From positions 1 through 36,499 of IMG/VR virus record IMGVR_UViG_3300032213_001225: DNA of 36,499 bases; one strand, written 5' to 3'. The stretch comes from a virus. This document shows, one piece after another, positions 8,086 through 28,540 of this stretch. The number at the start of each line of letters is the position of its first letter. Within the stretch, counting starts at the first letter, position 1. Made by a program: the position numbers and the translations under genes. The notes below the pieces were generated by a model. The model did no database searches. It was not told the origin of the DNA and saw nothing but the letters and a program-made list of their open reading frames with translations.

Positions 8086-8099
8086 TGGCGAAAGTCAAA
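8086..8099 (-). promoter_or_regulatory. Repeated 14-base upstream element, copy 3
   Basis: The coding strand reads TTTGACTTTCGCCA, ending 21 bases before the ATG at 8064. The TGA stop of the glycosyltransferase gene (8095-8097) lies within it. It marks the switch from the glycosylation module back to tail genes. Confidence 0.7.
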
Positions 8100-8658
8100 G
8101 CTCGGGGGCCGCGGTCGTGGCCGCGTCGTGGATGTAAGTGTGCAAGACCTTGTTGATGTGATGCCCAGTCTTAATTCGCTTTCTTGCTTGCTGGCTCCAG
8201 ATGATGTCCTCGCCGTAATTGCTGAACCCAAAGACGCATCCCTTCACCTTCTGGTGATTCCAAGCACAAACGTGCCACGGTCCGCGAAGGGTAATGCCAC
8301 CTGGGTTGAACTGGCCGTCTTGGTTTTTTACGCCAAAATGCACCTCGCTTTGCAGACCGTTGTAGATTGCTTTCTGATTGAACGTGATGACATCGGCTTT
8401 TATTTCAATGGCTTTCAATAACTCAGAAACGTAGTTATGAGAAACGTCATCATCGTCGTCACAAAACGCGATGTATTCGCCATTGGCAATATCAACCAAA
8501 GATTGCCGCTTCTCTCCGATGCTGCGCTTGCGGTTGTCGCTCAATATCAGATGCTCAACTGGTAAATCACCGATCTGCTTTGCCAGTTTTTCGCTTAGAG
8601 CCTTCAGTTGGCTTTCCCTGCTTGGAATCGTCGGTGTCAGTATGCTTAATTTCATCAT
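8095..8658 (-). CDS. Family-2-like glycosyltransferase
   Basis: A 187-residue single-domain glycosyltransferase of the GT-A fold. The N-terminus is the nucleotide-sugar strand (KLSILTPTIPSRESQLKAL). Residues 63-71 (IAFCDDDDD) hold the metal-binding DxD-type motif. GEDIIWSQQ near residue 155 supplies a likely catalytic acidic pair after a Gly/Cys-rich stretch (KGCVFGFSNYG). It lacks a membrane anchor. The start at 8658 (MMKLS) follows an A-rich leader; 8655 is equally possible. It overlaps the 58-residue gene by 92 bases. With the 723-residue protein it forms a glycosylation module; the acceptor is unknown. Confidence 0.8.
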   Translation of the reverse strand: MMKLSILTPTIPSRESQLKALSEKLAKQIGDLPVEHLILSDNRKRSIGEKRQSLVDIANGEYIAFCDDDDDVSHNYVSELLKAIEIKADVITFNQKAIYNGLQSEVHFGVKNQDGQFNPGGITLRGPWHVCAWNHQKVKGCVFGFSNYGEDIIWSQQARKRIKTGHHINKVLHTYIHDAATTAAPEL

Positions 8659-8743
8659 TTTTCTTTTCTTTGTTTTTCCAAAGTGGGCATTCATCCCACG
8701 CTTTACGGTTTTTAACTCTGTTCCAGCTGCCTTTGTGACTCAT
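8567..8743 (-). CDS. Small basic protein overlapping the glycosyltransferase
   Basis: A 58-residue protein whose ATG overlaps the preceding stop (8740) by four bases. It begins MSHKGSWNRVKNRKAWDECPLW, a pattern I have seen in short phage proteins of unknown function, and ends in a long Lys/Glu-rich disordered tail that runs 92 bases into the next gene. The N-terminal half is the more convincing coding part. The tail may be a readthrough extension kept because the downstream start lies inside it. Confidence 0.55.
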   Translation of the reverse strand: MSHKGSWNRVKNRKAWDECPLWKNKEKKNDEIKHTDTDDSKQGKPTEGSKRKTGKADR

Positions 8744-10911
8744 GGTTTTTGATTTTGTTTGATCCAGCATCTGCCGATGATGGTGTATTTGATGCCTAGT
8801 GACTCCAATGCTTTTTGAACGCCTTCTGAGTCGGCATCATGTCCGCCGATAAAGCCGCCATTCTTGACCTTTGGGAGCCATGCCTCGATGTCGCGCTTGG
8901 CGCTGGCGTAATCATGCGCTGCATCGATGAAAACGCCGTCAAGAGCATCGTCAGCGAATTGTGCCGCTGATCCTGCGCTGTCTCCCTCGATGATTGAAAT
9001 CTCACGAGAGCCTCGGTTGTTTTTAAACTCCTCCAATACATCGATCCTGCCGGTTTCGTCATCGCCTTTGAAGGTATCGACGACATGAAACTTGATCTGC
9101 TTGTTGATGTCCTCCAGGCGGTCTGCAAGATAGACTGCGCTTTTTCCTTTCCAAGCGCCGACCTCGACGAACTGGCCGCATTCTGGAATTGTTTTTGCGA
9201 CGTAATCATAGACATCTCGGAAGTCGAACCATCCGTGAATATCTGTCGATATGGGCGAGCCTGAAACCAAGCGATTGAAGATGCCCTGACCTGTCAGATA
9301 ATAAAAGCCATCATTGCTGCGCTCGTATGTCTGATCTGATTTAGCTTTGCCAAATGCTGGGTGAACGTGTTCAAAAACAATATCTGCCTTGGCATCGATG
9401 ATGACGCCGTCCTTTGCGGCCTTGTAAGAAAACCAATTATCCCAGAACATTGAGAAAAACTCTGGGTGGAAGAAATACCCCTGTTCAATGTATCGCGCCC
9501 GGGTAATGATTGCCATGCAAAGCAAATCGTCTTTTCGGAATCCGTCGGAAATGGCTAGAACTTTTGATTCCGATGTGTCGCCGATGGCACGAATGATTTC
9601 CTGATCCCATCCTTGGAATGGTTTCCAATCATCGCTCAACTGAATCAATATATCTCCAGAACATGATTTTGCCGCTGCGTTCCACGCTCCGACGCATCCA
9701 GAATTATGGGTGTTAATCACGCACCTGGCATTTGCAAGAGGGTATGATTCGAAATCATCGATGTCGATTGCAAAGATATGCTCAATAGCATCTGGATTCG
9801 TTGCAGATCGTAACCATTCCATCCTTGCTCGCCATGCTTGGGCCGGTCGTCCTCTGGTCGCGTGAAGTAGTGATATCTTAGCACCGTTCCGCAGGAAATG
9901 ATTTGTTTCGATTGCGTCGGCTTCTTCTCTGCGATTGTTTGCGCGTAGAGCCATACCACGCAGCCCCACACCGAGTGAGCCGTAATATGGACGGCGCAGG
10001 TTCCACGGCGGCTCTGGCGATATCTCCAGACCCATCATGGCATCGGTCCATCCAAGTGCTGAATCTGGGTCTGATATGGTTGCAGCTAGTCCAAGTTCTC
10101 CGTATGCTTCGCGTCGGCTTGGATCTGTTGCAAGCGCAGCCAGCAGCATTTGTTTTTTAGTTTCTTCATCTTCAGCGAGTCGAGCAAGTTGGAAATATGC
10201 TTCATAAAGCTCATTCTTGCCGACTCCCTCGGATTGCACAAACTCAAGAGCCGCTTGGATCGCCTCATCATTCCGGTCCAGTGCGATCAAGCTCTGGAAT
10301 GTATGGAATTTTTGTGAGATGGTTTGTTCTGTTACTGGAATCGAATTCAGGATCCGCAGATTGCGCTCATCTCTAGATGCGCTGCGTTTTTCGCTGGCAT
10401 GGACGATCTCGGCACCATCGAATCGCATGTGCTTGGTGCCTTCCTCAAATTTTAAGCATTCGTGAATTGGATGCTCCCACCTGGCTGAACCTTTGCGCCA
10501 TATTCTTTCGCGCCAGTTGATGATGTTATCTTCTGGCACGACGTAGCGCATCAAGACGCCATGAACGTCTTTGTCATCAATATCAGCAATCAACTGCCTG
10601 ATCTGATCACCCGAATCCTTGGTCATGATGTCATCGGTGTCGGCCCACATGAGCCAATCACCGGTGGCAAGATCAAGTGCTGCATTACGCGCTGCTCCGA
10701 AATCATCGACGTGATTCCAATAGCCCATTTTGTTGAAATACTCTCCGACTTTGCATCCTCTGCTTGTAGCAATATCAAGAGTGCCATCTGGCTCTTGGTT
10801 TCCGATTGCTCTGACGATGATAACCTCATCGAAAAATGGTTGGAAGTTGTTTAAAAAACGCTCGATGTAGTTCTCGGCGTTGCCCGTAATGACGCAAAGG
10901 GATAATTTCAT
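8740..10911 (-). CDS. Glycosyltransferase-TPR-glycosyltransferase-methyltransferase fusion
   Basis: A 723-residue multidomain enzyme. Residues 1-190 form a family-2 glycosyltransferase (KLSLCVITGNAENYIERFL; DTDD at 91-94; WEHPIHE near 145). Residues about 195-300 are TPR-like helices (LYEAYFQLARLAEDEE). Residues 345-525 form a second glycosyltransferase-like domain (NTHNSGCVGAWNAA; IQLSDDW at 423-429). Residues 575-715 are a class I SAM methyltransferase of the Methyltransf_24 type (VEVGAWKGKS at 582-591, FIDAAHDY at 661-668, GGFIGGHDAD). The parts suggest stepwise building and O-methylation of a glycan. Acceptor (virion protein, host envelope or DNA) is unknown. It sits after the capsid terminator behind a probable promoter. 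Confidence 0.85.
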   Translation of the reverse strand: MKLSLCVITGNAENYIERFLNNFQPFFDEVIIVRAIGNQEPDGTLDIATSRGCKVGEYFNKMGYWNHVDDFGAARNAALDLATGDWLMWADTDDIMTKDSGDQIRQLIADIDDKDVHGVLMRYVVPEDNIINWRERIWRKGSARWEHPIHECLKFEEGTKHMRFDGAEIVHASEKRSASRDERNLRILNSIPVTEQTISQKFHTFQSLIALDRNDEAIQAALEFVQSEGVGKNELYEAYFQLARLAEDEETKKQMLLAALATDPSRREAYGELGLAATISDPDSALGWTDAMMGLEISPEPPWNLRRPYYGSLGVGLRGMALRANNRREEADAIETNHFLRNGAKISLLHATRGRPAQAWRARMEWLRSATNPDAIEHIFAIDIDDFESYPLANARCVINTHNSGCVGAWNAAAKSCSGDILIQLSDDWKPFQGWDQEIIRAIGDTSESKVLAISDGFRKDDLLCMAIITRARYIEQGYFFHPEFFSMFWDNWFSYKAAKDGVIIDAKADIVFEHVHPAFGKAKSDQTYERSNDGFYYLTGQGIFNRLVSGSPISTDIHGWFDFRDVYDYVAKTIPECGQFVEVGAWKGKSAVYLADRLEDINKQIKFHVVDTFKGDDETGRIDVLEEFKNNRGSREISIIEGDSAGSAAQFADDALDGVFIDAAHDYASAKRDIEAWLPKVKNGGFIGGHDADSEGVQKALESLGIKYTIIGRCWIKQNQKP

Positions 10912-20069: not shown

Positions 20070-22646
20070 TCAAAAGAGACTCTCTGGTTTTTCTTGATTT
20101 TGAACACTGTTCAATAGGTGTTCACCTGTCGTAATTAGATACTGTTTGCGCTCTCGATGTTCCTTCCGATGAGGGTCATATTCATGCTCAATAATGCGAG
20201 TAATGTTCATTCCGTCAATCGAAATAACATCATCTCCAGCGTCCTTAAAAAGCCTTCCTAATAGGCGACCGACGCGCATATCTATCGACTCGCTTGATGA
20301 CTTGTTACCTGGCAATGGCAGGTCGTGATCCTCTGCCGCTTCTCCGAAATCAGAAGCCGTCAGAGTTTTGTTATTGTGACCATCATTCAAGATGGCTCGC
20401 ATAATATCGCGAAGCCATTGCAAACGCGGATTGGCAGTCCGCATCTGTTCCTCGCGGTGACCGTCAAGAAGCGGTGGAAACTCAAAAATGTTCTGCACAA
20501 TCCAGTCCATCACGCGGCACCATGTCCTGAAATCATGGCGGCCTTCGTTTGTCATTGGCATTCCATGCCTAACCCATTCTCGGATGATTGCATGAACCGC
20601 GCCTAGGTAAATGGGTTGATTGGCTTTGATGTGAGATAGCAGATCACCTTCTGGAAATACTTGGAAGGTATGGTTGTCAGCACGCTTTCTAATTCTCGTT
20701 ATTACAGCACGATTGGCAAGATCTCGCGTCAATTCAGCCCCGTTAGTTGAAAGTTGCCAGATAAACGGAGTGCAATCAATATCTGCCTCGGTTCGCAAAG
20801 CTCTTGCCGCTACCTTTCCGAGTCCACGGATGGCGGTTTCCATGATCTGTGAATCCATGCGTCCGCGAAAGTTGTCGAAACTGATAAATGGTCGACCAGT
20901 AATCAGAGCGCGTGACACACGCTCATCAAGGCTTCCGACTCCTCCAGCGGCTTGTGTAATGGCTGACGGATGTTCTCTGTAAATCGCGTGAATAACTTTA
21001 AACCGATAGCTTTTGCCTGATTGTGACTGATCGGCCTCAGCAAGATCCAGCGGGAAATCATCATCAATCCATCCGCCAATTTTCATAGCAGGTGAAATCA
21101 GTGAAGCCAGAGCGCGTGAAGCATCGCCACCATCTGGGAAATCAAAATCTGCCAATGCTTTTTGAAGTAAAGCGACCGCCTTTGAAAGATCTATGGTTGG
21201 TACTTCATCACCGCCGGTGACGTAAGTTCCACCGGCATGATTGTGGTAGCCTTTGTGAATAACTTTCACGCCGTTTTTATCGTCATGGATCAGCACTGGA
21301 GCAGAAACGAGCTGACGGATTCGTGGCAAAAACTCTCTTGCTCCATTTGATGAAAGAGCGACATCAGCGGATGAGTTTGGGAATGTAGTAGAACGCCAGC
21401 GAAGCGTTCCGTCTTCACGAGCCTCCCTTCGCATGACCTTTGAACCGAATGTCTCAATGAGAGAAACTAAGCGTTTTGAAGTAACTGGGACCATCGCATG
21501 AGAATCACCGTCCTCAACTGCCACCTCGTGAACAATGGATCCACGCATAAAAAGCCGATTTGATGGAGCAATCACAGCAAAGATGTGACGTGCGGCAAGA
21601 TCATGCCCAATCTCTCCAGCAGGGACTGGGAAAATTTCACAAGGAATGACGTTCGGATCATCATCTGCATCTTCGCTTGTGATTTGTGAAGCGGCATTTT
21701 TTCTAGTGGTTGCTGATACTGGAGCGGGTTGAATCCATCCATAATCCTTAGCCAAATGAACAAGTGTCCCGGTGTGTATGTCTTTTAGGCGGCTTTTGTA
21801 TTTTTCGGAGTATTCACCGACAATCTTTTCGGGTGACCAATCGATCAAGGCTGCTGTCCCTTCATCTTCTCCGATAGCGTCCCAGACTGCTGAGGCAATC
21901 TTCAACCATTCTTCATAGGATGGACTTGAAGGGATAACTGCAAGCATGTCACGAACGGTTTTAGGTGTAATCTCTTTTAATGATCCACCGCCCTTGATGA
22001 TCATGCTCGACTTATTTGATGCTTTAGGTGGTTTAGGTAGATCGCTAGTTACTTCGACCGGCTCAAAGACCGCGGTGCGGTTCAGATCAATCCAAGCGCC
22101 AGGATCGTGACTGACGAACATCAATCTGACTGGATCTTTACATGCTTCGTCGATCGTCAGATTGTGTGAGCGGAAATGATTGCGAGCGGCAGCAAACGCT
22201 GCCACATGTTCATCACGCGTCTTGCAGACTGGTATTCTGGCAATGCCTTTGACTCCGGCACCAGAAGGAGACACAAACGCGGCAACAATGCGCGGCTCGG
22301 CTTGAAGAATCTCGACGATCTCCTCGACCTCCCAGCCGACATTATCGACTGCATCGAAGTCGAGCTGGAGCAGTCCGCTGTGAGTGAATCGCCCCTCCTC
22401 GATCGCTTTCGCCCGGCGACCTGTACAGCATCCTGAGATGCTGACGGCTTGCAGGTCTTTTTTTGCGAGTGAATAGCCGTCGTCGTCACCGGCTGCCAGC
22501 GTGCTGCGGAGCTTGGTAATCTTGGCGGAGAACTCATCTGAGCGGATTGCCTCAATTAGATCTTCAAGGGTTGTCGTTGCCATCGCGGTAGACGCTGTGG
22601 CGGATGAGTAAAAGTCTATTTTTGGATGTTGCATGGTCGTAGTCAT
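20070..22646 (-). CDS. Primase-helicase replication protein
   Basis: An 858-residue replication protein if started at 22646, where the ATG shares a base with the upstream stop (TAATG). An ATG at 22655 would add three residues. Residues about 30-200 resemble the VirE-N/BT4734 primase-like domain (LLQLDFDAVDN, SPSGAGVKGIA, DPVRLMFVSHDPGAW). Residues about 240-310 resemble a PriCT-type primase C-terminal domain (YEEWLKIASAVWDAI). Residues about 500-660 form a P-loop helicase domain with a variant Walker A (ADQSQSGKS), Walker B (FISFDNF) and an LSTNGAELTRDLANRAVITRI motif. It probably primes and unwinds at the neighbouring iterons. Confidence 0.85.
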   Translation of the reverse strand: MTTTMQHPKIDFYSSATASTAMATTTLEDLIEAIRSDEFSAKITKLRSTLAAGDDDGYSLAKKDLQAVSISGCCTGRRAKAIEEGRFTHSGLLQLDFDAVDNVGWEVEEIVEILQAEPRIVAAFVSPSGAGVKGIARIPVCKTRDEHVAAFAAARNHFRSHNLTIDEACKDPVRLMFVSHDPGAWIDLNRTAVFEPVEVTSDLPKPPKASNKSSMIIKGGGSLKEITPKTVRDMLAVIPSSPSYEEWLKIASAVWDAIGEDEGTAALIDWSPEKIVGEYSEKYKSRLKDIHTGTLVHLAKDYGWIQPAPVSATTRKNAASQITSEDADDDPNVIPCEIFPVPAGEIGHDLAARHIFAVIAPSNRLFMRGSIVHEVAVEDGDSHAMVPVTSKRLVSLIETFGSKVMRREAREDGTLRWRSTTFPNSSADVALSSNGAREFLPRIRQLVSAPVLIHDDKNGVKVIHKGYHNHAGGTYVTGGDEVPTIDLSKAVALLQKALADFDFPDGGDASRALASLISPAMKIGGWIDDDFPLDLAEADQSQSGKSYRFKVIHAIYREHPSAITQAAGGVGSLDERVSRALITGRPFISFDNFRGRMDSQIMETAIRGLGKVAARALRTEADIDCTPFIWQLSTNGAELTRDLANRAVITRIRKRADNHTFQVFPEGDLLSHIKANQPIYLGAVHAIIREWVRHGMPMTNEGRHDFRTWCRVMDWIVQNIFEFPPLLDGHREEQMRTANPRLQWLRDIMRAILNDGHNNKTLTASDFGEAAEDHDLPLPGNKSSSESIDMRVGRLLGRLFKDAGDDVISIDGMNITRIIEHEYDPHRKEHRERKQYLITTGEHLLNSVQNQEKPESLF

Positions 22647-22954
22647 TAGCTGCATAAATGTTTGGGAATAATTCTTCTAGCACCAGGCGGTTTCATGTCT
22701 AAAACGCTCGTTTCATTTCTCACCTTCTCAGGGAGTGGAACCCGGTCGATGTAGCTACCTTCTCCGACTCCATAGCGGAACTCCTCGATCATATTACTGA
22801 CCTCAGTAGAATGATCGTCCTCGATCATATTCCCGACGTCAGGAAAATGATCTTTGTTTTGGTTATCGGTCATAAGTGGGTGGTTTCGTGTGGGTTGTAG
22901 GTCGTTATCGCATACGCATCCATCGTGTCCGCAGTGTTTGCATTGTCCACTCAT
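22646..22954 (-). CDS. Small protein with N-terminal Cys/His cluster
   Basis: A 102-residue protein with CKHCGHDGCVC at residues 5-15, a likely zinc site. It contains an internal near-repeat (DVGNMIEDDHSTEVSNMIEE) and a basic end (PPGARRIIPKHLCS). It is joined to the preceding gene by the repeated stop/start junction (here CGAACGAACCATGA) and to the primase-helicase by TAATG, so it is the link between the small-gene nursery and replication. Function unknown. Confidence 0.6.
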   Translation of the reverse strand: MSGQCKHCGHDGCVCDNDLQPTRNHPLMTDNQNKDHFPDVGNMIEDDHSTEVSNMIEEFRYGVGEGSYIDRVPLPEKVRNETSVLDMKPPGARRIIPKHLCS

Positions 22955-23208
22955 GGTTCGTTCGGGGTTAGGGATTGGAGGGCATCTCGTAGACCATTAT
23001 AAGCCAGCATGGTGTTGTGCCTGCCCTTGGCTGCGATTAGTATGGTTGCTGCATTGACCGCCTCCGCCAGCCTGTCCCGCTGCTCGGTGACGGCGGCGAG
23101 TTCGCGTTCTAGTAATCGACTGAATTGCTCAAGACTGTAAAGTGCTGATGCAGTTCTAAATCCTTTGACCTGGTCTATAATGTCGTTAGTTCTCGGTGTG
23201 TCGTTCAT
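22951..23208 (-). CDS. PRTD-type coiled-coil protein, paralogue C
   Basis: An 85-residue protein starting MNDTPRTNDI at 23208, where the ATG overlaps the previous TGA by four bases in a CGAACGAACTATGA junction. An upstream in-frame ATG at 23235 is disfavoured by this. The centre is a coiled coil (SRLLERELAAVTEQRDRLAEA) followed by LIAAKGRHNTMLAYNGLRDA. The latter is identical in the gene at 24103-24492. It ends with the tag LTPNEP. No function known; small PRTD proteins of this kind are frequent in environmental phages. Confidence 0.65.
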   Translation of the reverse strand: MNDTPRTNDIIDQVKGFRTASALYSLEQFSRLLERELAAVTEQRDRLAEAVNAATILIAAKGRHNTMLAYNGLRDALQSLTPNEP

Positions 23209-23441
23209 AGTTCGTTCGTGGTTGTTATTTCCCAAGGCAGCAGCGTTTCATCAGCTTCCTCTTGGCTATCGCATGATAGGTTGCGGTATCTCTCGGCAAG
23301 GCGACGTGCTTCGTCCCGCTGCTCGGTGACTGCGGTTAGTTCGCGTTCGAGGGTTTCTGCGAAGTTTCTCCAAAGGTGATCGTGAGCCATTCCATCAATC
23401 ATTTGATGAGCATCTGTTCTCGGTGTCGGTGTGTCGTTCAT
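23205..23441 (-). CDS. PRTD-type coiled-coil protein, paralogue B
   Basis: A 78-residue protein (MNDTPTPRTDAHQMI...) linked to both neighbours by the repeated junction. The middle has LERELTAVTEQRDEARRLAERY, a heptad-patterned helix nearly identical to that in the neighbouring paralogues, and the end is TTTNEL. Only the segment between the shared start and shared helix is unique, as if modules had been swapped. Function unknown. Confidence 0.65.
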   Translation of the reverse strand: MNDTPTPRTDAHQMIDGMAHDHLWRNFAETLERELTAVTEQRDEARRLAERYRNLSCDSQEEADETLLPWEITTTNEL

Positions 23442-23650
23442 AGTTCGTTCGTGGCTTCGGTGAGCTTTATCCCATCTTTTTTAGCTTGTGCAAAAGTTTC
23501 GTATGTTTTGATAAGCTCTTGATTTTGATATAGGTCGAATACATTGCTTTCGCATATATGAGTTTCGCCCATAGCAAATACAATCCCATCAGGAATACTT
23601 CTTGGTTTGATCGTAAATCCTTCTTTGAATGTATATTCTTTTGTTTTCAC
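23438..23650 (-). CDS. Unrecognised small protein with GTG start
   Basis: A 70-residue protein starting with GTG at 23650; the GTGA overlaps the TGA of the 43-residue gene before it. It is beta-rich (YTFKEGFTIKPRSIPDGIVFAMGETHIC) and then helical (QELIKTYETFAQAKKDG), ending TEATNEL within the repeated stop/start junction. It is unlike the PRTD paralogues in sequence but shares their junction. Family unknown. Confidence 0.6.
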   Translation of the reverse strand: MKTKEYTFKEGFTIKPRSIPDGIVFAMGETHICESNVFDLYQNQELIKTYETFAQAKKDGIKLTEATNEL

Positions 23651-23778
23651 AGATTTCTAATTTTCCAGTAGATTGTTTGGCATATATCGTGAATGATATA
23701 ACGGAAGAAATCAGGATGTCTAAATCTCCAGCGTTCGCCATGTTTTAGGCTTAGGAATAAGCAGTAGCAGTATCTCAT
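23647..23778 (-). CDS. Small basic protein, 43 residues
   Basis: A short gene between two confirmed coupled neighbours. The ATG at 23778 overlaps the previous TGA in the repeated CGAACGAACTATGA junction, and its TGA overlaps the next gene's GTG. The product (MRYCYCLFLSLKHGERWRFR, then HPDFFRYIIHD and ICQTIYWKIRNL) is basic and aromatic with three Cys. Both junctions argue strongly that it is translated. Function unknown. Confidence 0.65.
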   Translation of the reverse strand: MRYCYCLFLSLKHGERWRFRHPDFFRYIIHDICQTIYWKIRNL

Positions 23779-24098
23779 AGTTCGTTCGGGGTTAGGGATT
23801 GGAGTGCTTCGGTTGCAATGCTTTCTGGCTCTTCTTCGGCAAACCTTCCTTGGTAGTCTAGGATACGTTCAAGTGCCTCAGCCAGCCTGTCCCGCTGCTC
23901 GGTTACTTTGTGTAGTTGATCGCTTGCATAATCAATACCCCATCGCAATCCGTCCCGCTGCTCGGTGACGGCGGTTAGTTCGCGTTCTAGTTCATCGCAT
24001 AATTGCAACGCTGAAACATAATCTGCGCTTGCACGGGTTGACATTGCATTTCTTAATGCTTCAAATTCATCAGTCCTCGGTGTCGGTGTGTCGTTCAT
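23775..24098 (-). CDS. PRTD-type coiled-coil protein, paralogue A
   Basis: A 107-residue protein starting MNDTPTPRTDEFEALRNAM at 24098. An open frame extends to 24221, but the MNDTP start is shared with the paralogues. It contains two coiled-coil units, ELERELTAVTEQRDGLRWG and HKVTEQRDRLAEALERI, suggesting internal duplication, then the tag SLTPNEL. Unlike its neighbours it is not preceded by the repeated junction; a degraded form lies upstream near 24130-24160. Confidence 0.65.
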   Translation of the reverse strand: MNDTPTPRTDEFEALRNAMSTRASADYVSALQLCDELERELTAVTEQRDGLRWGIDYASDQLHKVTEQRDRLAEALERILDYQGRFAEEEPESIATEALQSLTPNEL

Positions 24099-24102
24099 AA
24101 TC

Positions 24103-24492
24103 TTAGGGGTAAAATGATTGATGTTCGTTGGCATCATACTTTTTGGGTTGGGTTGTGGATTGGAGGGCATCTCGTAGCCCGTTATAAGCGAGCATAGTGT
24201 TGTGTCGTCCCTTGGCTGCAATTAATACAGTGGCAGCTTCGATGACTTCCGCCAGCCTGTCCCGTTGCTCCGCTGTTTTAATGTAAATGTTTGATGTCAT
24301 CACTCTAGACTCTTCGATTGCATCACGCTGTCCAATAGCGGTCTTCAGCTCCTCCCGTGCGGCGGTGACTTCTTTCTGCGCTGCCTGCCATGCTTCCCAT
24401 GCAAGACCTTGTGGGGACAGTATGTTGCTGTTGTCATATATGACTGTATCCAGCCACTGTTCAAATTCTTTGCGTTGTTGTTCTTTGTTCAT
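24103..24492 (-). CDS. Coiled-coil protein, paralogue D
   Basis: A 129-residue protein starting MNKEQQRKEFEQWL at 24492, where the ATG overlaps the preceding TGA in the repeated junction. It has a helical body (WEAWQAAQKEVTAAREELKTA), then AEQRDRLAEVIEAATVL and IAAKGRHNTMLAYNGLRDA, shared with paralogue C. Its end (TQPKKYDANEHQSFYP) diverges from the usual PNEL tag. This looks like loss of the junction and readthrough into former leader sequence. Confidence 0.65.
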   Translation of the reverse strand: MNKEQQRKEFEQWLDTVIYDNSNILSPQGLAWEAWQAAQKEVTAAREELKTAIGQRDAIEESRVMTSNIYIKTAEQRDRLAEVIEAATVLIAAKGRHNTMLAYNGLRDALQSTTQPKKYDANEHQSFYP

Positions 24493-24725
24493 AGTTCGTT
24501 CGGGTTGGTTGTCCTGAAATTGCAAGCTGGTGAAAAACTAGGCGTCCAGCACCCGTTTTTCTCCTCAATCGCATATTTAAAAATCCCTGTTTCGTTTTTG
24601 ACGTATGCCCATGCAAAGTTATCGTTTCGCATCTTAATCTTAATTTTGCCTTTAGGGAATCCAGATAAAGGAAGCGGGTTCTTTACTCCAAAAATGATAT
24701 TTTGTTTTGTTGTAATTAGTTTCAT
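24489..24725 (-). CDS. Unrecognised small protein
   Basis: A 78-residue protein starting MKLITTKQNIIFGVKNPLPL at 24725 in the repeated junction. It is basic and beta-rich (GKIKIKMRNDNFAWAYVKNE), ends TTNPNEL, and stops inside the next copy of the junction. It is not related in sequence to the PRTD paralogues, so the junction rather than the protein is the shared element. Function unknown. Confidence 0.6.
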   Translation of the reverse strand: MKLITTKQNIIFGVKNPLPLSGFPKGKIKIKMRNDNFAWAYVKNETGIFKYAIEEKNGCWTPSFSPACNFRTTNPNEL

Positions 24726-24940
24726 AGTTCGTTCGGGTTGGTTGGTTCCATCCGCTTGATTTCGCGGTTGATATACCAAGCGGCCTTCTTCAAGTCTTGG
24801 ATCTCACTGTTCTTTTCTCCGGCTCTCCAGATGTATTTGATGGCGTTGCCACGGTTGAAGTTGAAATGCTCGGTGATCCGGATGCACTCGATCCCGCTCG
24901 GATGGCTTTTGTAGTGGGGTGGTTGATTGACTAGGTCCAT
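24722..24940 (-). CDS. DUF3310-type phage protein
   Basis: A 72-residue protein with the DUF3310 pattern: NQPPHYKSHPSGIECIRITEHFNF, then RGNAIKYIWRAGEKN and DLKKAAWYINREI. Such proteins are common in early regions of phages infecting many hosts, sometimes as nucleotide-metabolism-linked domains, but have no established biochemical role. The C-terminal TNPNEL is added by the repeated junction and is not part of the usual family. The leader is A-rich (CACTAAAAAAACAATG). Confidence 0.85.
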   Translation of the reverse strand: MDLVNQPPHYKSHPSGIECIRITEHFNFNRGNAIKYIWRAGEKNSEIQDLKKAAWYINREIKRMEPTNPNEL

Positions 24941-24970
24941 TGTTTTTTTAGTGTTTGGTTTGGAGATTGG

Positions 24971-26326
24971 TTAATTCATGCGCTGGAGAGCGCGGACAGC
25001 CAAGAGCATTCCGCTCTGAGTTTCTGATTTGTCGCGGAGTGCTTCAGCCACCGCGTCATCCACCGTCCCTGAGCAGATGATACGATAGATCAGAGTCTCG
25101 GCCGTTTGTCCAGTGCGAATGAGTCGGGCGTTGGTTTGGACGTAGGTTTCGTGCGAATAGGTGAGTGAGACCCAGATTGCGATCCGGCAGGAAACTTGCA
25201 GCCCGTCGATGCCGTGGCTGAGTGATCGAGCATCGGCGACCCAGACTGGGATCTTGCCTGCCTTCCAGTCATCTAGGTCAGCTTCGTTGAACATCTTGGA
25301 TCCGCGAACCTCGGCGATGACCCGGGCGCTTTCGTGCTTGAACGCGCAGAGAACGAGAACCGGCTCGCCCTTGTGCCGAGCGATGATCGCCTTGAGCGTG
25401 GAGATCTTAGCGGTGTGAACTGGCAGGATGTTGCGCTCGGCATCATAGACGGCTCCAGAGGTGAGCTGGAGGAGCTTATTGACCAACACTCCGGCTGATG
25501 GTGCAGTGATCTCTCCATCCTCGATCTCGGCAAGCATCTCTTTTTCTAGCGTCTTGTATTGTTTGCGAGCTTCGGGAGGCATGACCGCAGCGACATCGAC
25601 CACGCTCGACGCTGGCAGATCAGACTCCTCGCCGATCAAGACCAGAGCAAGGTCTGAGAGCTTGGCGTCGATCGCCTCCTTGGAGCCGGTCACGAGCTTG
25701 TAGGTGTAGCCCATGTAATCCGCTGGGTAGAAATAAGCGTCGCGGTAGCCGGTGAACGTGCGACCGAGGCGGCTGCCATCGTCGAGCATCTTGATCTGCA
25801 TAAAGAGGTCAAGGTAGTTGTTCGGGATCGGTGTCCCGGTAAGACCCCAGCGGCGCTCGATCGCGGCGAGGTGCCGGTGCAGAGCCTTGAAGCGTTTGGA
25901 GGCTGGGTTCTTAGCGAGGCTGAGTTCGTCGATGACCAGCGTGTCCACCGGGATCTCGAAGGTTTTGCTCTTCGGGAACATCTTCGGCAGGCGGCTCGGT
26001 AGCAGCTCGGAGTTGATGAGGTAGATGTCAGCGGATTGCTCGTGCCATGCCTTGAGTCCTGCTGCGGTCCGCAGGTGTGCGATTCTCATCCATCGGGTGT
26101 GCGCCCACCGCTCGACCTGAGCTGGCCATGTGATCGAGCAGACGCGGAGCGGTGCGACGATGAGAGCTGCCTTGAACTTGCCGACCGTTGCCAGCGCGTC
26201 GATCGCGGTCAGAGTGACGACGGTCTTGCCCTTGCCCGGTGAGACGAACAGCGCGGCCCGATCGTTGTCGAGTAAGTAATCGATCATCGGGAGCTGGTAG
26301 GCGAACGGCTGGAAGGTTTGGCTCAT
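24971..26326 (-). CDS. SNF2-type DEAD/DEAH helicase
   Basis: A 451-residue superfamily 2 ATPase. Motif I is SPGKGKT at 29-35, motif Ia APLRVCSITW, motif II DELS at 133-136 and motif III LTGTPIPNN. The C-terminal lobe has LSHGIDGLQVS and motif VI NARLIRTGQTAETLIYRI, as in SNF2 proteins. It is a compact form common in phages, expected to translocate on DNA during replication or repair. It starts three bases after the helicase-methyltransferase stop and is visibly richer in GC than that gene. Confidence 0.9.
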   Translation of the reverse strand: MSQTFQPFAYQLPMIDYLLDNDRAALFVSPGKGKTVVTLTAIDALATVGKFKAALIVAPLRVCSITWPAQVERWAHTRWMRIAHLRTAAGLKAWHEQSADIYLINSELLPSRLPKMFPKSKTFEIPVDTLVIDELSLAKNPASKRFKALHRHLAAIERRWGLTGTPIPNNYLDLFMQIKMLDDGSRLGRTFTGYRDAYFYPADYMGYTYKLVTGSKEAIDAKLSDLALVLIGEESDLPASSVVDVAAVMPPEARKQYKTLEKEMLAEIEDGEITAPSAGVLVNKLLQLTSGAVYDAERNILPVHTAKISTLKAIIARHKGEPVLVLCAFKHESARVIAEVRGSKMFNEADLDDWKAGKIPVWVADARSLSHGIDGLQVSCRIAIWVSLTYSHETYVQTNARLIRTGQTAETLIYRIICSGTVDDAVAEALRDKSETQSGMLLAVRALQRMN

Positions 26327-26329
26327 GCG

Positions 26330-28540
26330 TTAGAATAAAGACAACTGAGCGTTGGCATTTGTTAAGTTTTGGCATGCTTGATTGAAATATGATTCTTTGA
26401 GTTCGCTGCCGATGAATCTGCGTCCAAGTTGGATCGACTTGTAACCCTCGCTGCCGATGCCGGTGAAAGGTGAATAAACTAGATCGCCGGTATTACTCCA
26501 AAGTGTTACGGCGCGTTCAATAACGTCCAACTGCAACGGGCAAATGTGCTTTTCGTCCTTGTGATCTTTTGCGCCGTTCTTATTTAAAACATTACCTTGA
26601 TCGACTGTCATCCAAACTGGACTAGCAACCTCTTGCCACCATGACACGGGATAGTCATTTGCGTTTTTAACAATTGGCTTTGGATTCTTGCCCGGTGCTT
26701 TAAAAACAAGCAGATAGTCAGCGCATCCAACCCTTGAATCCGATGAGTCCTTTTTTAGCGTTGCATGAAGTAAGCCGTGAGCCTTGGTTCTTTGCATCTC
26801 GGTGACGGGTGATTTCCAAATACAGATACGGCTATGGAATAAAAACCCGTGCCTCCAAAATGCGCGGATGATTTCGCCGCTGAAATCTTGGAATTGAATC
26901 GCGCCGTGTTTCCATTTTGTAGCGAGTAAATCCACACAATGAACCGCAACCTCGCGCCCCGGAACCATGATGCGCTTCATCTCTTCAATTAGGATTTCAA
27001 AGTGTGCCGTGAAATCCTCCAATCCGTCACAATTCCCCATGTCTTGAGGATCGTTTGAATAGGTAAAAAGATCTGCAAAAGGCGGCGAAAATACTGAGAA
27101 ATCAATTGTATGATCTTTAATCTCTTTTGCTACTCTGACGCAATCGCCGTGATATACTGTCCATCCGTCTCCTTCTTGTTTATCAATATCTGTTTTCATA
27201 ATGTTTTTTCTGTTTGTAGATTCTCTAAAGCATTCTGCCGCAATCTTCATTTGTGACTGCATTTCTTCGTGTTGTGCTATCTTGCGCTTGATCGTTTTCA
27301 TAATCGCGCCCTCGGTTGTGGCGTGGACGATGTAAGCGTTGACTTCGCGCTTTTGTCCGAACCGATAGGAACGGCGCAAAGCCTGATAGAAGTCCTCAAA
27401 TGAGTATGATAAACCAACAAACGCCACGTTTCGGCAATGCTGCCAGTTCATACCATATCCAAAGATTCCGCTCTTTGAGATAAGAACTCGATGTTCACCG
27501 GATACAAACCCATTGGCGGCGTTTTCTTTGTATTTAGCGGTATCACTTCCCTTGACTTCAATCCCGTCTGGAATCGCCTTTTTAAGCATATCGCTTTCAA
27601 GATTAGTATTACACCAAACGATCCAAGATTCATCCGAGTTATTGACTAAGTTTGCAACCTCATCGACGCGCTGTTGAGCGGTCATTCGTAGCTCTTTGTG
27701 CATCGTGGTTGCGGATAAGGTTGAAATACGAAACATCTCTCCTTCACTTGCTCCTTCGACCTCATCGACATCGACAATGATAGTTTCTAGATTCAGTTTA
27801 GGCAGGTCATACCCTTCATCTGGAAATCCAATATCGGATGGTTTTGATATACAAGCAGCCCAGCTAGATACCCATTCCCAGAACGTAGTTTCAGCGTGCT
27901 TTTTTAGTCTCCAGTCGCCTGTGTTAAATGTATCATTTACAAAGTAAGTTGCGAGCATTTGCATGGGTGAACATACCCCAAGGAAATCAGCGTGTTGACC
28001 AAACTCGGTATAGTCGTTAGGTGATGGAGTAGCCGTGCAGCAAAGACGAAAACGAGTATCTGAAAAGCGATTTGTCAGCCGTCTGCGTGTTTTGCCTGTA
28101 AAGTTTTTAAGAATGCTGGATTCATCTAATACCACTCCGCCGAAGTCCACCGAATCAAAATGATCCAACTTATCATAGTTTGTGATATAAATTCCCGGTT
28201 CAGTAATTTCAGATTCATCTGAAACAACTTTGGCCTGATATCCAAACTTCAAAGCCTCTGATTCAGTTTGCTTTGCAACTGCCAGCGGCGTTAAAACTAA
28301 TACTGGCTTTTCAGTGTAGATTGAAACTTGATGCACCCATTCTAATTGCTGAAAAGTCTTTCCAAGTCCGCACTCTTCAAATAAAGCAGCACGTCCTTTT
28401 TTTATAGCCCATTCAACAACTTGCTTTTGCCAATCAAACAAAGGTGCAGTAATTTTTGATGCTTCAAAACCGTATTCTTGAGCTTTTCTAATTTTGTTTT
28501 TAATAAAGGAATCATAATCCTTAGTATCTTGTTTTTTCAT
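26330..28540 (-). CDS. SNF2-type helicase fused to a DNA methyltransferase
   Basis: A 736-residue fusion. Residues 30-440 are an SNF2-like helicase: GLGKT at 58-62, LDESS at 138-142, TATPSPNDY, and QALRRSYRFGQKREVNAY as motif VI. Residues about 455-736 are an amino-methyltransferase of the beta arrangement: catalytic motif IV SPPF at 485-488 and, near the end, the SAM-binding motif PFTGIGSEGY at 691-700. SPPF-type motifs occur in N4-cytosine and some N6-adenine enzymes; which base is modified is open. An internal ATG at 27199 (Met448) has the phage's own leader (AAAACATTATG), so the methyltransferase may also be made alone. Composition is AT-rich compared with the next helicase. Confidence 0.88.
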   Translation of the reverse strand: MKKQDTKDYDSFIKNKIRKAQEYGFEASKITAPLFDWQKQVVEWAIKKGRAALFEECGLGKTFQQLEWVHQVSIYTEKPVLVLTPLAVAKQTESEALKFGYQAKVVSDESEITEPGIYITNYDKLDHFDSVDFGGVVLDESSILKNFTGKTRRRLTNRFSDTRFRLCCTATPSPNDYTEFGQHADFLGVCSPMQMLATYFVNDTFNTGDWRLKKHAETTFWEWVSSWAACISKPSDIGFPDEGYDLPKLNLETIIVDVDEVEGASEGEMFRISTLSATTMHKELRMTAQQRVDEVANLVNNSDESWIVWCNTNLESDMLKKAIPDGIEVKGSDTAKYKENAANGFVSGEHRVLISKSGIFGYGMNWQHCRNVAFVGLSYSFEDFYQALRRSYRFGQKREVNAYIVHATTEGAIMKTIKRKIAQHEEMQSQMKIAAECFRESTNRKNIMKTDIDKQEGDGWTVYHGDCVRVAKEIKDHTIDFSVFSPPFADLFTYSNDPQDMGNCDGLEDFTAHFEILIEEMKRIMVPGREVAVHCVDLLATKWKHGAIQFQDFSGEIIRAFWRHGFLFHSRICIWKSPVTEMQRTKAHGLLHATLKKDSSDSRVGCADYLLVFKAPGKNPKPIVKNANDYPVSWWQEVASPVWMTVDQGNVLNKNGAKDHKDEKHICPLQLDVIERAVTLWSNTGDLVYSPFTGIGSEGYKSIQLGRRFIGSELKESYFNQACQNLTNANAQLSLF

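What the first reader, a model, noticed from the sequence alone, without database searches (positions are those of the whole stretch)
22951..24741. Modular small-gene nursery linked by a repeated stop/start cassette
Six junctions share C(C/A)CGAACGAAC(T/C)ATGA, so unrelated proteins all end in Asn-Glu-Leu/Pro and the next gene starts on the same ATGA. The proteins joined include DUF3310, a basic protein, a 43-residue protein and PRTD coiled-coil paralogues. The junction is conserved while the proteins are not. That suggests either a strong termination-reinitiation signal or a homology patch used to insert, swap and duplicate small genes. The junctions fall into three sub-pairs with longer shared flanks, as expected if copied with one gene.
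Basis: partly seen in the sequence, partly recalled or inferred. Interest (0 to 1): 0.72.

Follow-up and report, generated by a model that had tools for sequence, protein, structure and literature searches.

The report
Repeated stop/start patch for shuffling genes
In a virus lineage that probably infects Verrucomicrobiota, small unrelated genes are joined by one nearly identical short sequence that is both the end of one gene and the start of the next, and related viruses have inserted, lost and reordered whole genes at these joints without breaking the reading frames.

Summary
Six exact CGAACGAAC(T/C)ATGA copies lie at minus-strand gene junctions between 22951 and 24735 and nowhere else in the 36.5-kb virus record. 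Unrelated proteins therefore end in N-E-L/P, and the next gene starts inside the stop codon.

Relatives settle most of the interpretation. I found 60 distinct copies of this junction in about 30 IMG/VR contigs. One upstream gene end pairs with up to eight different downstream genes, and one downstream gene with up to four upstream genes. In near-identical relatives the 78-aa gene (window 24489-24725) is present or absent exactly from ATG to ATG: 353-354 of 354 nt are identical before it and 887 of 900 after it. Similarity blocks end at motif junctions 5-8 times more often per base than inside genes (0 of 2000 shuffles) and 2-3 times more often than at other gene starts.

The phage has almost no Shine-Dalgarno starts, and other A/C-rich leaders serve the same gene family. 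An obligatory reinitiation signal is therefore unlikely.

Best reading: a short leader used as a frame-neutral homology patch for one-gene exchange, a dense case of the proposed 'conserved boundary sequence'. Breakpoints also occur inside genes, and mosaicism is general in this lineage, so the motif is a preferred site and not the only one.

The parts
24722..24735 (-). junction motif CGAACGAACTATGA: end of the DUF3310 gene / start of the 78-aa gene
24489..24502 (-). junction motif: end of the 78-aa gene / start of the 129-aa gene
23775..23788 (-). junction motif: end of the 107-aa PRTD gene / start of the 43-aa gene
23438..23451 (-). junction motif: end of the 70-aa gene / start of the 78-aa PRTD gene
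23205..23218 (-). junction motif: end of the 78-aa PRTD gene / start of the 85-aa PRTD gene
22951..22964 (-). junction motif CGAACGAACCATGA: end of the 85-aa PRTD gene / start of the 102-aa gene
24722..24940 (-). DUF3310 gene, 72 aa; its C-terminal TNPNEL is junction-encoded
   Evidence: Pfam PF11753 E 3e-14; five different downstream partners in relatives
24489..24725 (-). g2, 78-aa basic protein; the clearest mobile one-gene module
   Evidence: present/absent exactly at the junction in L018 vs L022/L028
24103..24492 (-). g3, 129 aa; its C-terminal half is paralogous to that of g8 (121-nt repeat, 82%)
23775..24098 (-). g4, 107-aa PRTD/coiled-coil paralogue; its own start has no motif
23647..23778 (-). 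g5, 43-aa gene
23438..23650 (-). g6, 70-aa gene with GTG start; its start junction lacks the motif
23205..23441 (-). g7, 78-aa PRTD/coiled-coil paralogue; homologous C-terminal ends have eight different downstream partners in relatives
22951..23208 (-). g8, 85-aa PRTD/coiled-coil paralogue; AlphaFold2 gives a mostly helical model with a low-confidence tail
22646..22954 (-). g9, 102-aa CxxC-containing protein; preceded by the CATG form of the motif here and in L007, L014, L016 and L080
24971..26326 (-). SNF2-type helicase, island flank used to fetch relatives
20070..22655 (-). primase/helicase (BT4734-like N-terminal domain, PriCT-2), other island flank

Best explanation
The junction is an A/C-rich, Shine-Dalgarno-less leader that sits inside the last codons of the upstream gene and overlaps its stop with the next start (CGAACGAAC-N-ATGA). 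Because the same ~9-19 bp occurs at many junctions, recombination in one copy joins any upstream gene to any downstream gene and still leaves a correct stop (N-E-L/P) and a correct start. Single small genes are thereby inserted, lost, duplicated and re-paired as [leader + gene] modules near the helicase and primase genes. Shown: the motif, its restriction to the island, the re-pairing, one exact one-gene presence/absence, the enrichment of breakpoints, and the lack of Shine-Dalgarno sites. Inferred: that the patch itself is the recombination substrate (phage- or host-mediated annealing of short homology) and that it supports translation start or reinitiation.
For: One-gene indel: L018 against L022 and L028 is 353/354 and 354/354 nt identical up to the ATG, then unrelated (the 233-nt g2 module), then 887/900 and 888/900 identical in DUF3310 and beyond. 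g2 has three sets of left neighbours and four of right neighbours in five phages, always with the motif on both sides. Sixty distinct junction contexts: 9 left types have 2-8 right partners and 6 right types have 2-4 left partners. Similarity-block ends: 30-35 per kb at motif junctions, 4-6.5 per kb inside genes, 10-19 per kb at other gene starts; observed 52 against a null mean of 12 (sd 4, maximum 28), 0 of 2000 circular shifts, and the result holds when only helicase-fetched loci are used, which were not selected by motif. When the downstream gene changes, the upstream gene keeps its NEL tail and motif in all such comparisons listed. Synonymous codons are nearly fixed at the DNA level: AACGAAC in 60 of 64 AAY-GAR-CNA-TGA overlaps, against AAC 62% and GAA 52% in the long genes (part of the loci were fetched by motif, which inflates the 60). 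Leader-type features: A 43% and G 12% before other starts, SD-like sites at 5 of 54 starts, motif starts more open than others (0.70 vs 0.61, P 0.003).
Against: Breakpoints are not exclusive to the motif. Most block ends lie inside genes, with a second enrichment at the EQRD-coding repeat. The lineage is mosaic at many other gene borders, and adjacency conservation is only moderately lower at motif junctions (0.26 vs 0.40-0.45). A 9-bp exact patch is short for RecA-type recombination, and no annealing recombinase was recognised in the genes scanned. Block ends are not statistically independent, and a shared motif lengthens alignments up to its own edge. Translation and recombination were not measured.
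Confidence: 0.68

Rival explanations
1. Translation-signal view: the motif is a selected start or reinitiation signal for small genes (like start-associated sequences). Genes move by ordinary illegitimate or longer-homology recombination, and only arrangements with a working signal survive, so the motif sits at breakpoints without causing them.
For: The motif lies in the -1 to -10 region of every gene concerned; the genome has almost no Shine-Dalgarno sites and its leaders are A-rich; motif starts are predicted more open; in 6 of 60 sites it is only a leader not read by the upstream gene; cluster K SAS elements are a precedent (PMC3203893).
Against: At least nine other ATGA overlaps in this genome and many PRTD genes in relatives do with other leaders. 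Exact CGAACGAAC identity across about 30 contigs exceeds what a loose A/C-rich requirement would fix. Breakpoint density is higher than at other gene starts.
Confidence: 0.22
2. Plain paralogue history: most junctions look alike because the PRTD genes are tandem duplicates, and the motif is simply part of the duplicated gene ends.
For: Several flanks are PRTD paralogue ends (ALQSLTPNEL), and the sub-pairs share longer flanks.
Against: Unrelated genes (DUF3310, g2, g6, g9, the 119-aa 'TPEAQRIAIAEACGW' family) carry the same junction with unrelated flanks on one or both sides. DUF3310/g2 in the window and g2/DUF3310 in L018 are motif junctions between two non-PRTD genes.
Confidence: 0.07
3. DNA-level recognition site (protein binding, operator or site-specific recombinase target) placed at gene junctions.
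For: Near-invariant short DNA string repeated in one orientation in one island.
Against: No inverted repeats in the island; nearly always phased with a start codon; other leader variants replace it in relatives.
Confidence: 0.03

Closest known systems
Short conserved boundary sequences proposed for phage mosaicism (lambdoid phages; cited in PMC3029335 and PMC6466182)
   Same: A short shared sequence at gene borders; adjacent genes are swapped as modules. In PMC3029335 an inserted Island3 gene shares its C-terminal 18 residues with the upstream gene, which is the same logic for one event.
   Different: Here one string of about 9-19 bp recurs up to six times in one genome and at about 60 distinct borders in a lineage, overlaps stop and start, and encodes a common C-terminal tail on unrelated proteins. 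[quoted passage not shown]
Start-associated sequences (SAS/ESAS) of cluster K mycobacteriophages (PMC3203893)
   Same: A short asymmetric string repeated upstream of starts of genes of different families, mostly in one orientation.
   Different: SAS (GGGATAGGAGCCC) is a different, G-rich string. Here the string is A/C-rich without Shine-Dalgarno, lies inside the upstream gene's last codons in most cases, and coincides with exchange points.
Mobile regulatory cassettes of T4-type phages (Arbiol et al. 2010, cited in PMC3797505; paper itself not held)
   Same: A repeated gene-border element linked to modular shuffling.
   Different: From own knowledge those are intergenic early-promoter/stem-loop elements. 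Here there is no intergenic space, and no inverted repeats were found.
Termination-reinitiation at ATGA overlaps (PMC6728339)
   Same: The same -4 stop/start geometry, common in prokaryotes.
   Different: That paper finds that most groups place an SD motif at such overlaps; this phage has none there, and the conserved string is far longer than the overlap.

Membership tests
Conserved boundary sequence at phage module junctions | the same short sequence at several gene borders whose flanking genes are unrelated | tested here: met
Conserved boundary sequence at phage module junctions | gene exchange breakpoints coincide with it in related genomes | tested here: met
   exact one-gene indel and enrichment; not exclusive
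Conserved boundary sequence at phage module junctions | homologous recombination actually occurs in it | not testable with these tools
   needs crosses or deep population data
Start-associated sequences (SAS) of cluster K mycobacteriophages | immediately upstream of starts of genes of different families, one orientation | tested here: met
Start-associated sequences (SAS) of cluster K mycobacteriophages | sequence GGGATAGGAGCCC or a variant | tested here: not met
   different sequence; consensus quoted from PMC3203893
T4-type mobile regulatory cassettes | promoter plus stem-loop in an intergenic space | tested here: not met
   no intergenic space and no inverted repeats; promoters not scanned
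Integron-like gene cassettes | imperfect inverted-repeat attC-like site after each gene | tested here: not met
   no inverted repeats in 22600-25000
Termination-reinitiation gene pairs | -4 ATGA overlap | tested here: met
Termination-reinitiation gene pairs | downstream translation depends on upstream translation | not testable with these tools
   needs reporters or ribosome profiling

The most novel reading that the evidence does not exclude
A phage lineage maintains, under selection, a frame-neutral exchange patch: a start leader constrained to be read as a harmless C-terminal tail, so that one island works as an open gene-cassette array rearranged by homology alone, without integrase or special sites.
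Probability: 0.15. Interest if true: 0.78.

Novelty: new variant of a known kind. Interest (0 to 1): 0.52.

Why it matters
Short boundary sequences have long been proposed to drive phage gene mosaicism but are seldom found. This lineage offers dozens of copies, with near-identical relatives that differ by exactly one gene. The idea becomes directly testable, and the case shows how a stop/start overlap can make gene insertion frame-safe. It also warns annotators that shared C-terminal N-E-L/P tails on unrelated phage proteins need not reflect protein homology.

Tried and rejected
The helicase-alignment scan of bacterial genomes found no relatives. The motif scan of bacterial genomes gave 8 hits, about the 7-8 I estimate by chance, in unrelated phyla, and is treated as noise. 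The whole-genome terminase search was used only to place the host. A first control for adjacency with loose gene calls (0.24 vs 0.17) was uninformative and was replaced by a close-relatives version. tblastn of a PRTD protein in cultured phages found nothing. Attempts to trace the single base before ATG to the left or right gene gave only weak signals (0.77 right-shared, 0.66 left-shared, 0.50 neither). The paper on T4 mobile cassettes is not held.

Full report
OBSERVATION. The window is an IMG/VR virus record held whole (36,499 bp; completeness not given). On its minus strand, genes between a SNF2-type helicase (24971-26326) and a primase (20070-22655) form a chain of nine small genes. CGAACGAAC(T/C)ATGA occurs exactly six times, all at junctions in this chain. 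No seventh site appears with up to two mismatches, and shuffled sequence gives 0.77 on average. At each site the upstream protein ends N-E-L or N-E-P and the next gene starts at the ATG that overlaps the TGA. Two junctions of the chain (g3/g4 and g5/g6) lack the motif.

WHAT THE GENES ARE. g1 is DUF3310 (PF11753, E 3e-14). g4, g7 and g8 are 'PRTD' paralogues with a common LEREL-TAVTEQRD-RLAEA core. The AlphaFold2 model for g8 is almost all helix (pLDDT 72; residues 21-61 one helix), with a low-confidence C-terminal tail where the junction-encoded residues lie. g2, g3, g5, g6 and g9 have no confident family.

RELATIVES. The helicase fetched 48 loci. Motif and gene searches added more. Across all of them there are 154 copies of GAACGAACNATG in 60 distinct flanking contexts (at least one of the 60, L049, is probably a chance match). 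Gene order is shuffled. Window: helicase-DUF3310-g2-g3-g4-g5-g6-g7-g8-g9-primase. L018: helicase-x-PRTD-PRTD-g2-DUF3310. L022: helicase-x-PRTD-g2-y-PRTD-PRTD-PRTD-DUF3310. L014: helicase-primase-DUF3310-PRTD-g9. The DUF3310 end meets five different downstream genes, the g2 end four, and the g7-type end eight. g9 has four upstream partners and g2 three.

CLEANEST EVENT. In L018, gene X, g2 and DUF3310 follow each other. In L022 and L028, X is followed directly by DUF3310. X and the motif are 353/354 and 354/354 nt identical up to the ATG, and DUF3310 onward is 887/900 and 888/900 identical. The difference is the 233-nt g2 module, cut exactly from ATG to ATG. A related oddity is L104, where the first codons of a g9-like gene run into GAACGAACTATG plus a PRTD gene, an in-frame fusion at the motif.

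STATISTICS. I aligned all loci at 93% identity or more and asked where similarity blocks end. Per kb: motif junctions 34.7, EQRD-coding repeat 23.3, other gene starts 12.0, inside genes 6.5. Motif-junction ends were 52, against 12.3 (sd 3.9, maximum 28) under circular shifts. Restricting to helicase-fetched loci, which were not chosen by motif, gives 33.3, 19.3 and 4.2 per kb for motif junctions, other starts and gene interiors, with 0 of 2000 shifts reaching the observed count. Limits: block ends are not independent, and neighbours also change at many non-motif borders. Conserved adjacency is 0.26 at motif junctions and 0.40-0.45 elsewhere. The motif is thus a preferred site within a generally mosaic lineage.

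HOW IT LIKELY WORKS. Only 5 of 54 predicted starts in the window have SD-like sequence, and leaders are A-rich. Terminase relatives at about 23-35% identity occur in 21 of 388 Verrucomicrobiota genomes and in 0 of 383 genomes each of the phyla of a Bacteroidales and a Gemmatimonadota locus. Some Verrucomicrobiota are described as SD-scarce (PMC10783764). The motif fits as an SD-independent leader, and motif starts are predicted somewhat more open than other starts (0.70 vs 0.61). It is not obligatory: at least nine other ATGA overlaps in this genome lack it, and only 12 of about 46 distinct PRTD starts in loci not fetched by motif carry it. The others use A/C-rich variants such as AACCAACCAACCGAAC(C/T)ATGA (that loose pattern also picked up a few non-genes). 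In six of 60 sites the motif is only a leader, because the upstream frame closes before it, and in two more there is no TGA overlap. The simplest account is a leader with one open frame. A gene end that runs into it gains a short N-E-L/P tail and a -4 overlap, and from then on recombination between any two copies is frame-neutral for both genes. At codon level the string is held as DNA: AACGAAC in 60 of 64 possible synonymous overlaps, a count inflated by loci fetched with the motif.

COMPARISON. [quoted passage not shown] Cluster K SAS elements are repeated start-linked strings of unknown function (PMC3203893). The present case combines both properties, in one lineage, at dozens of borders. 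It is a new variant of a known kind. Neither recombination in the patch nor translation from it has been shown.

Noticed in passing
window 20070-22655; L014, L016 and other loci: The primase is mosaic: most close relatives share only residues ~4-223 (BT4734-like N-terminal part, 76-88% identity) and carry a different C-terminal part.
   Followed up: partly
window 23074-23113, 23313-23352, 23952-23991: A 40-nt repeat coding VTEQRD inside PRTD genes is a second, intragenic hot spot of similarity breakpoints; N- and C-terminal halves of these proteins are recombined among relatives (L022 vs L026).
   Followed up: partly
window 22782-22852: Two adjacent 35-nt repeats (86%) inside g9 duplicate a NMIE-type peptide; L014 lacks one copy.
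   Followed up: no
window 26330-28540: One 736-aa protein joins a SNF2-type helicase and an N6/N4 DNA methyltransferase domain.
   Followed up: no
window 8095-10911: Two glycosyltransferase-like proteins (199 and 723 aa, the latter with a methyltransferase-like end, judged by eye only) lie among the virion genes next to the capsid gene.
   Followed up: no
L031, L032: Contigs with two copies of island or helicase genes (L032 in inverted orientation): possible assembly chimeras or true duplications.
   Followed up: no
related loci L018, L061, L105, L110, L113: A second recurrent leader, AACCAACCAACCGAAC(C/T)ATGA or close to it, occurs at PRTD starts, with tails such as ...NNQPTEP on the upstream protein: possibly a parallel patch.
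   Followed up: partly
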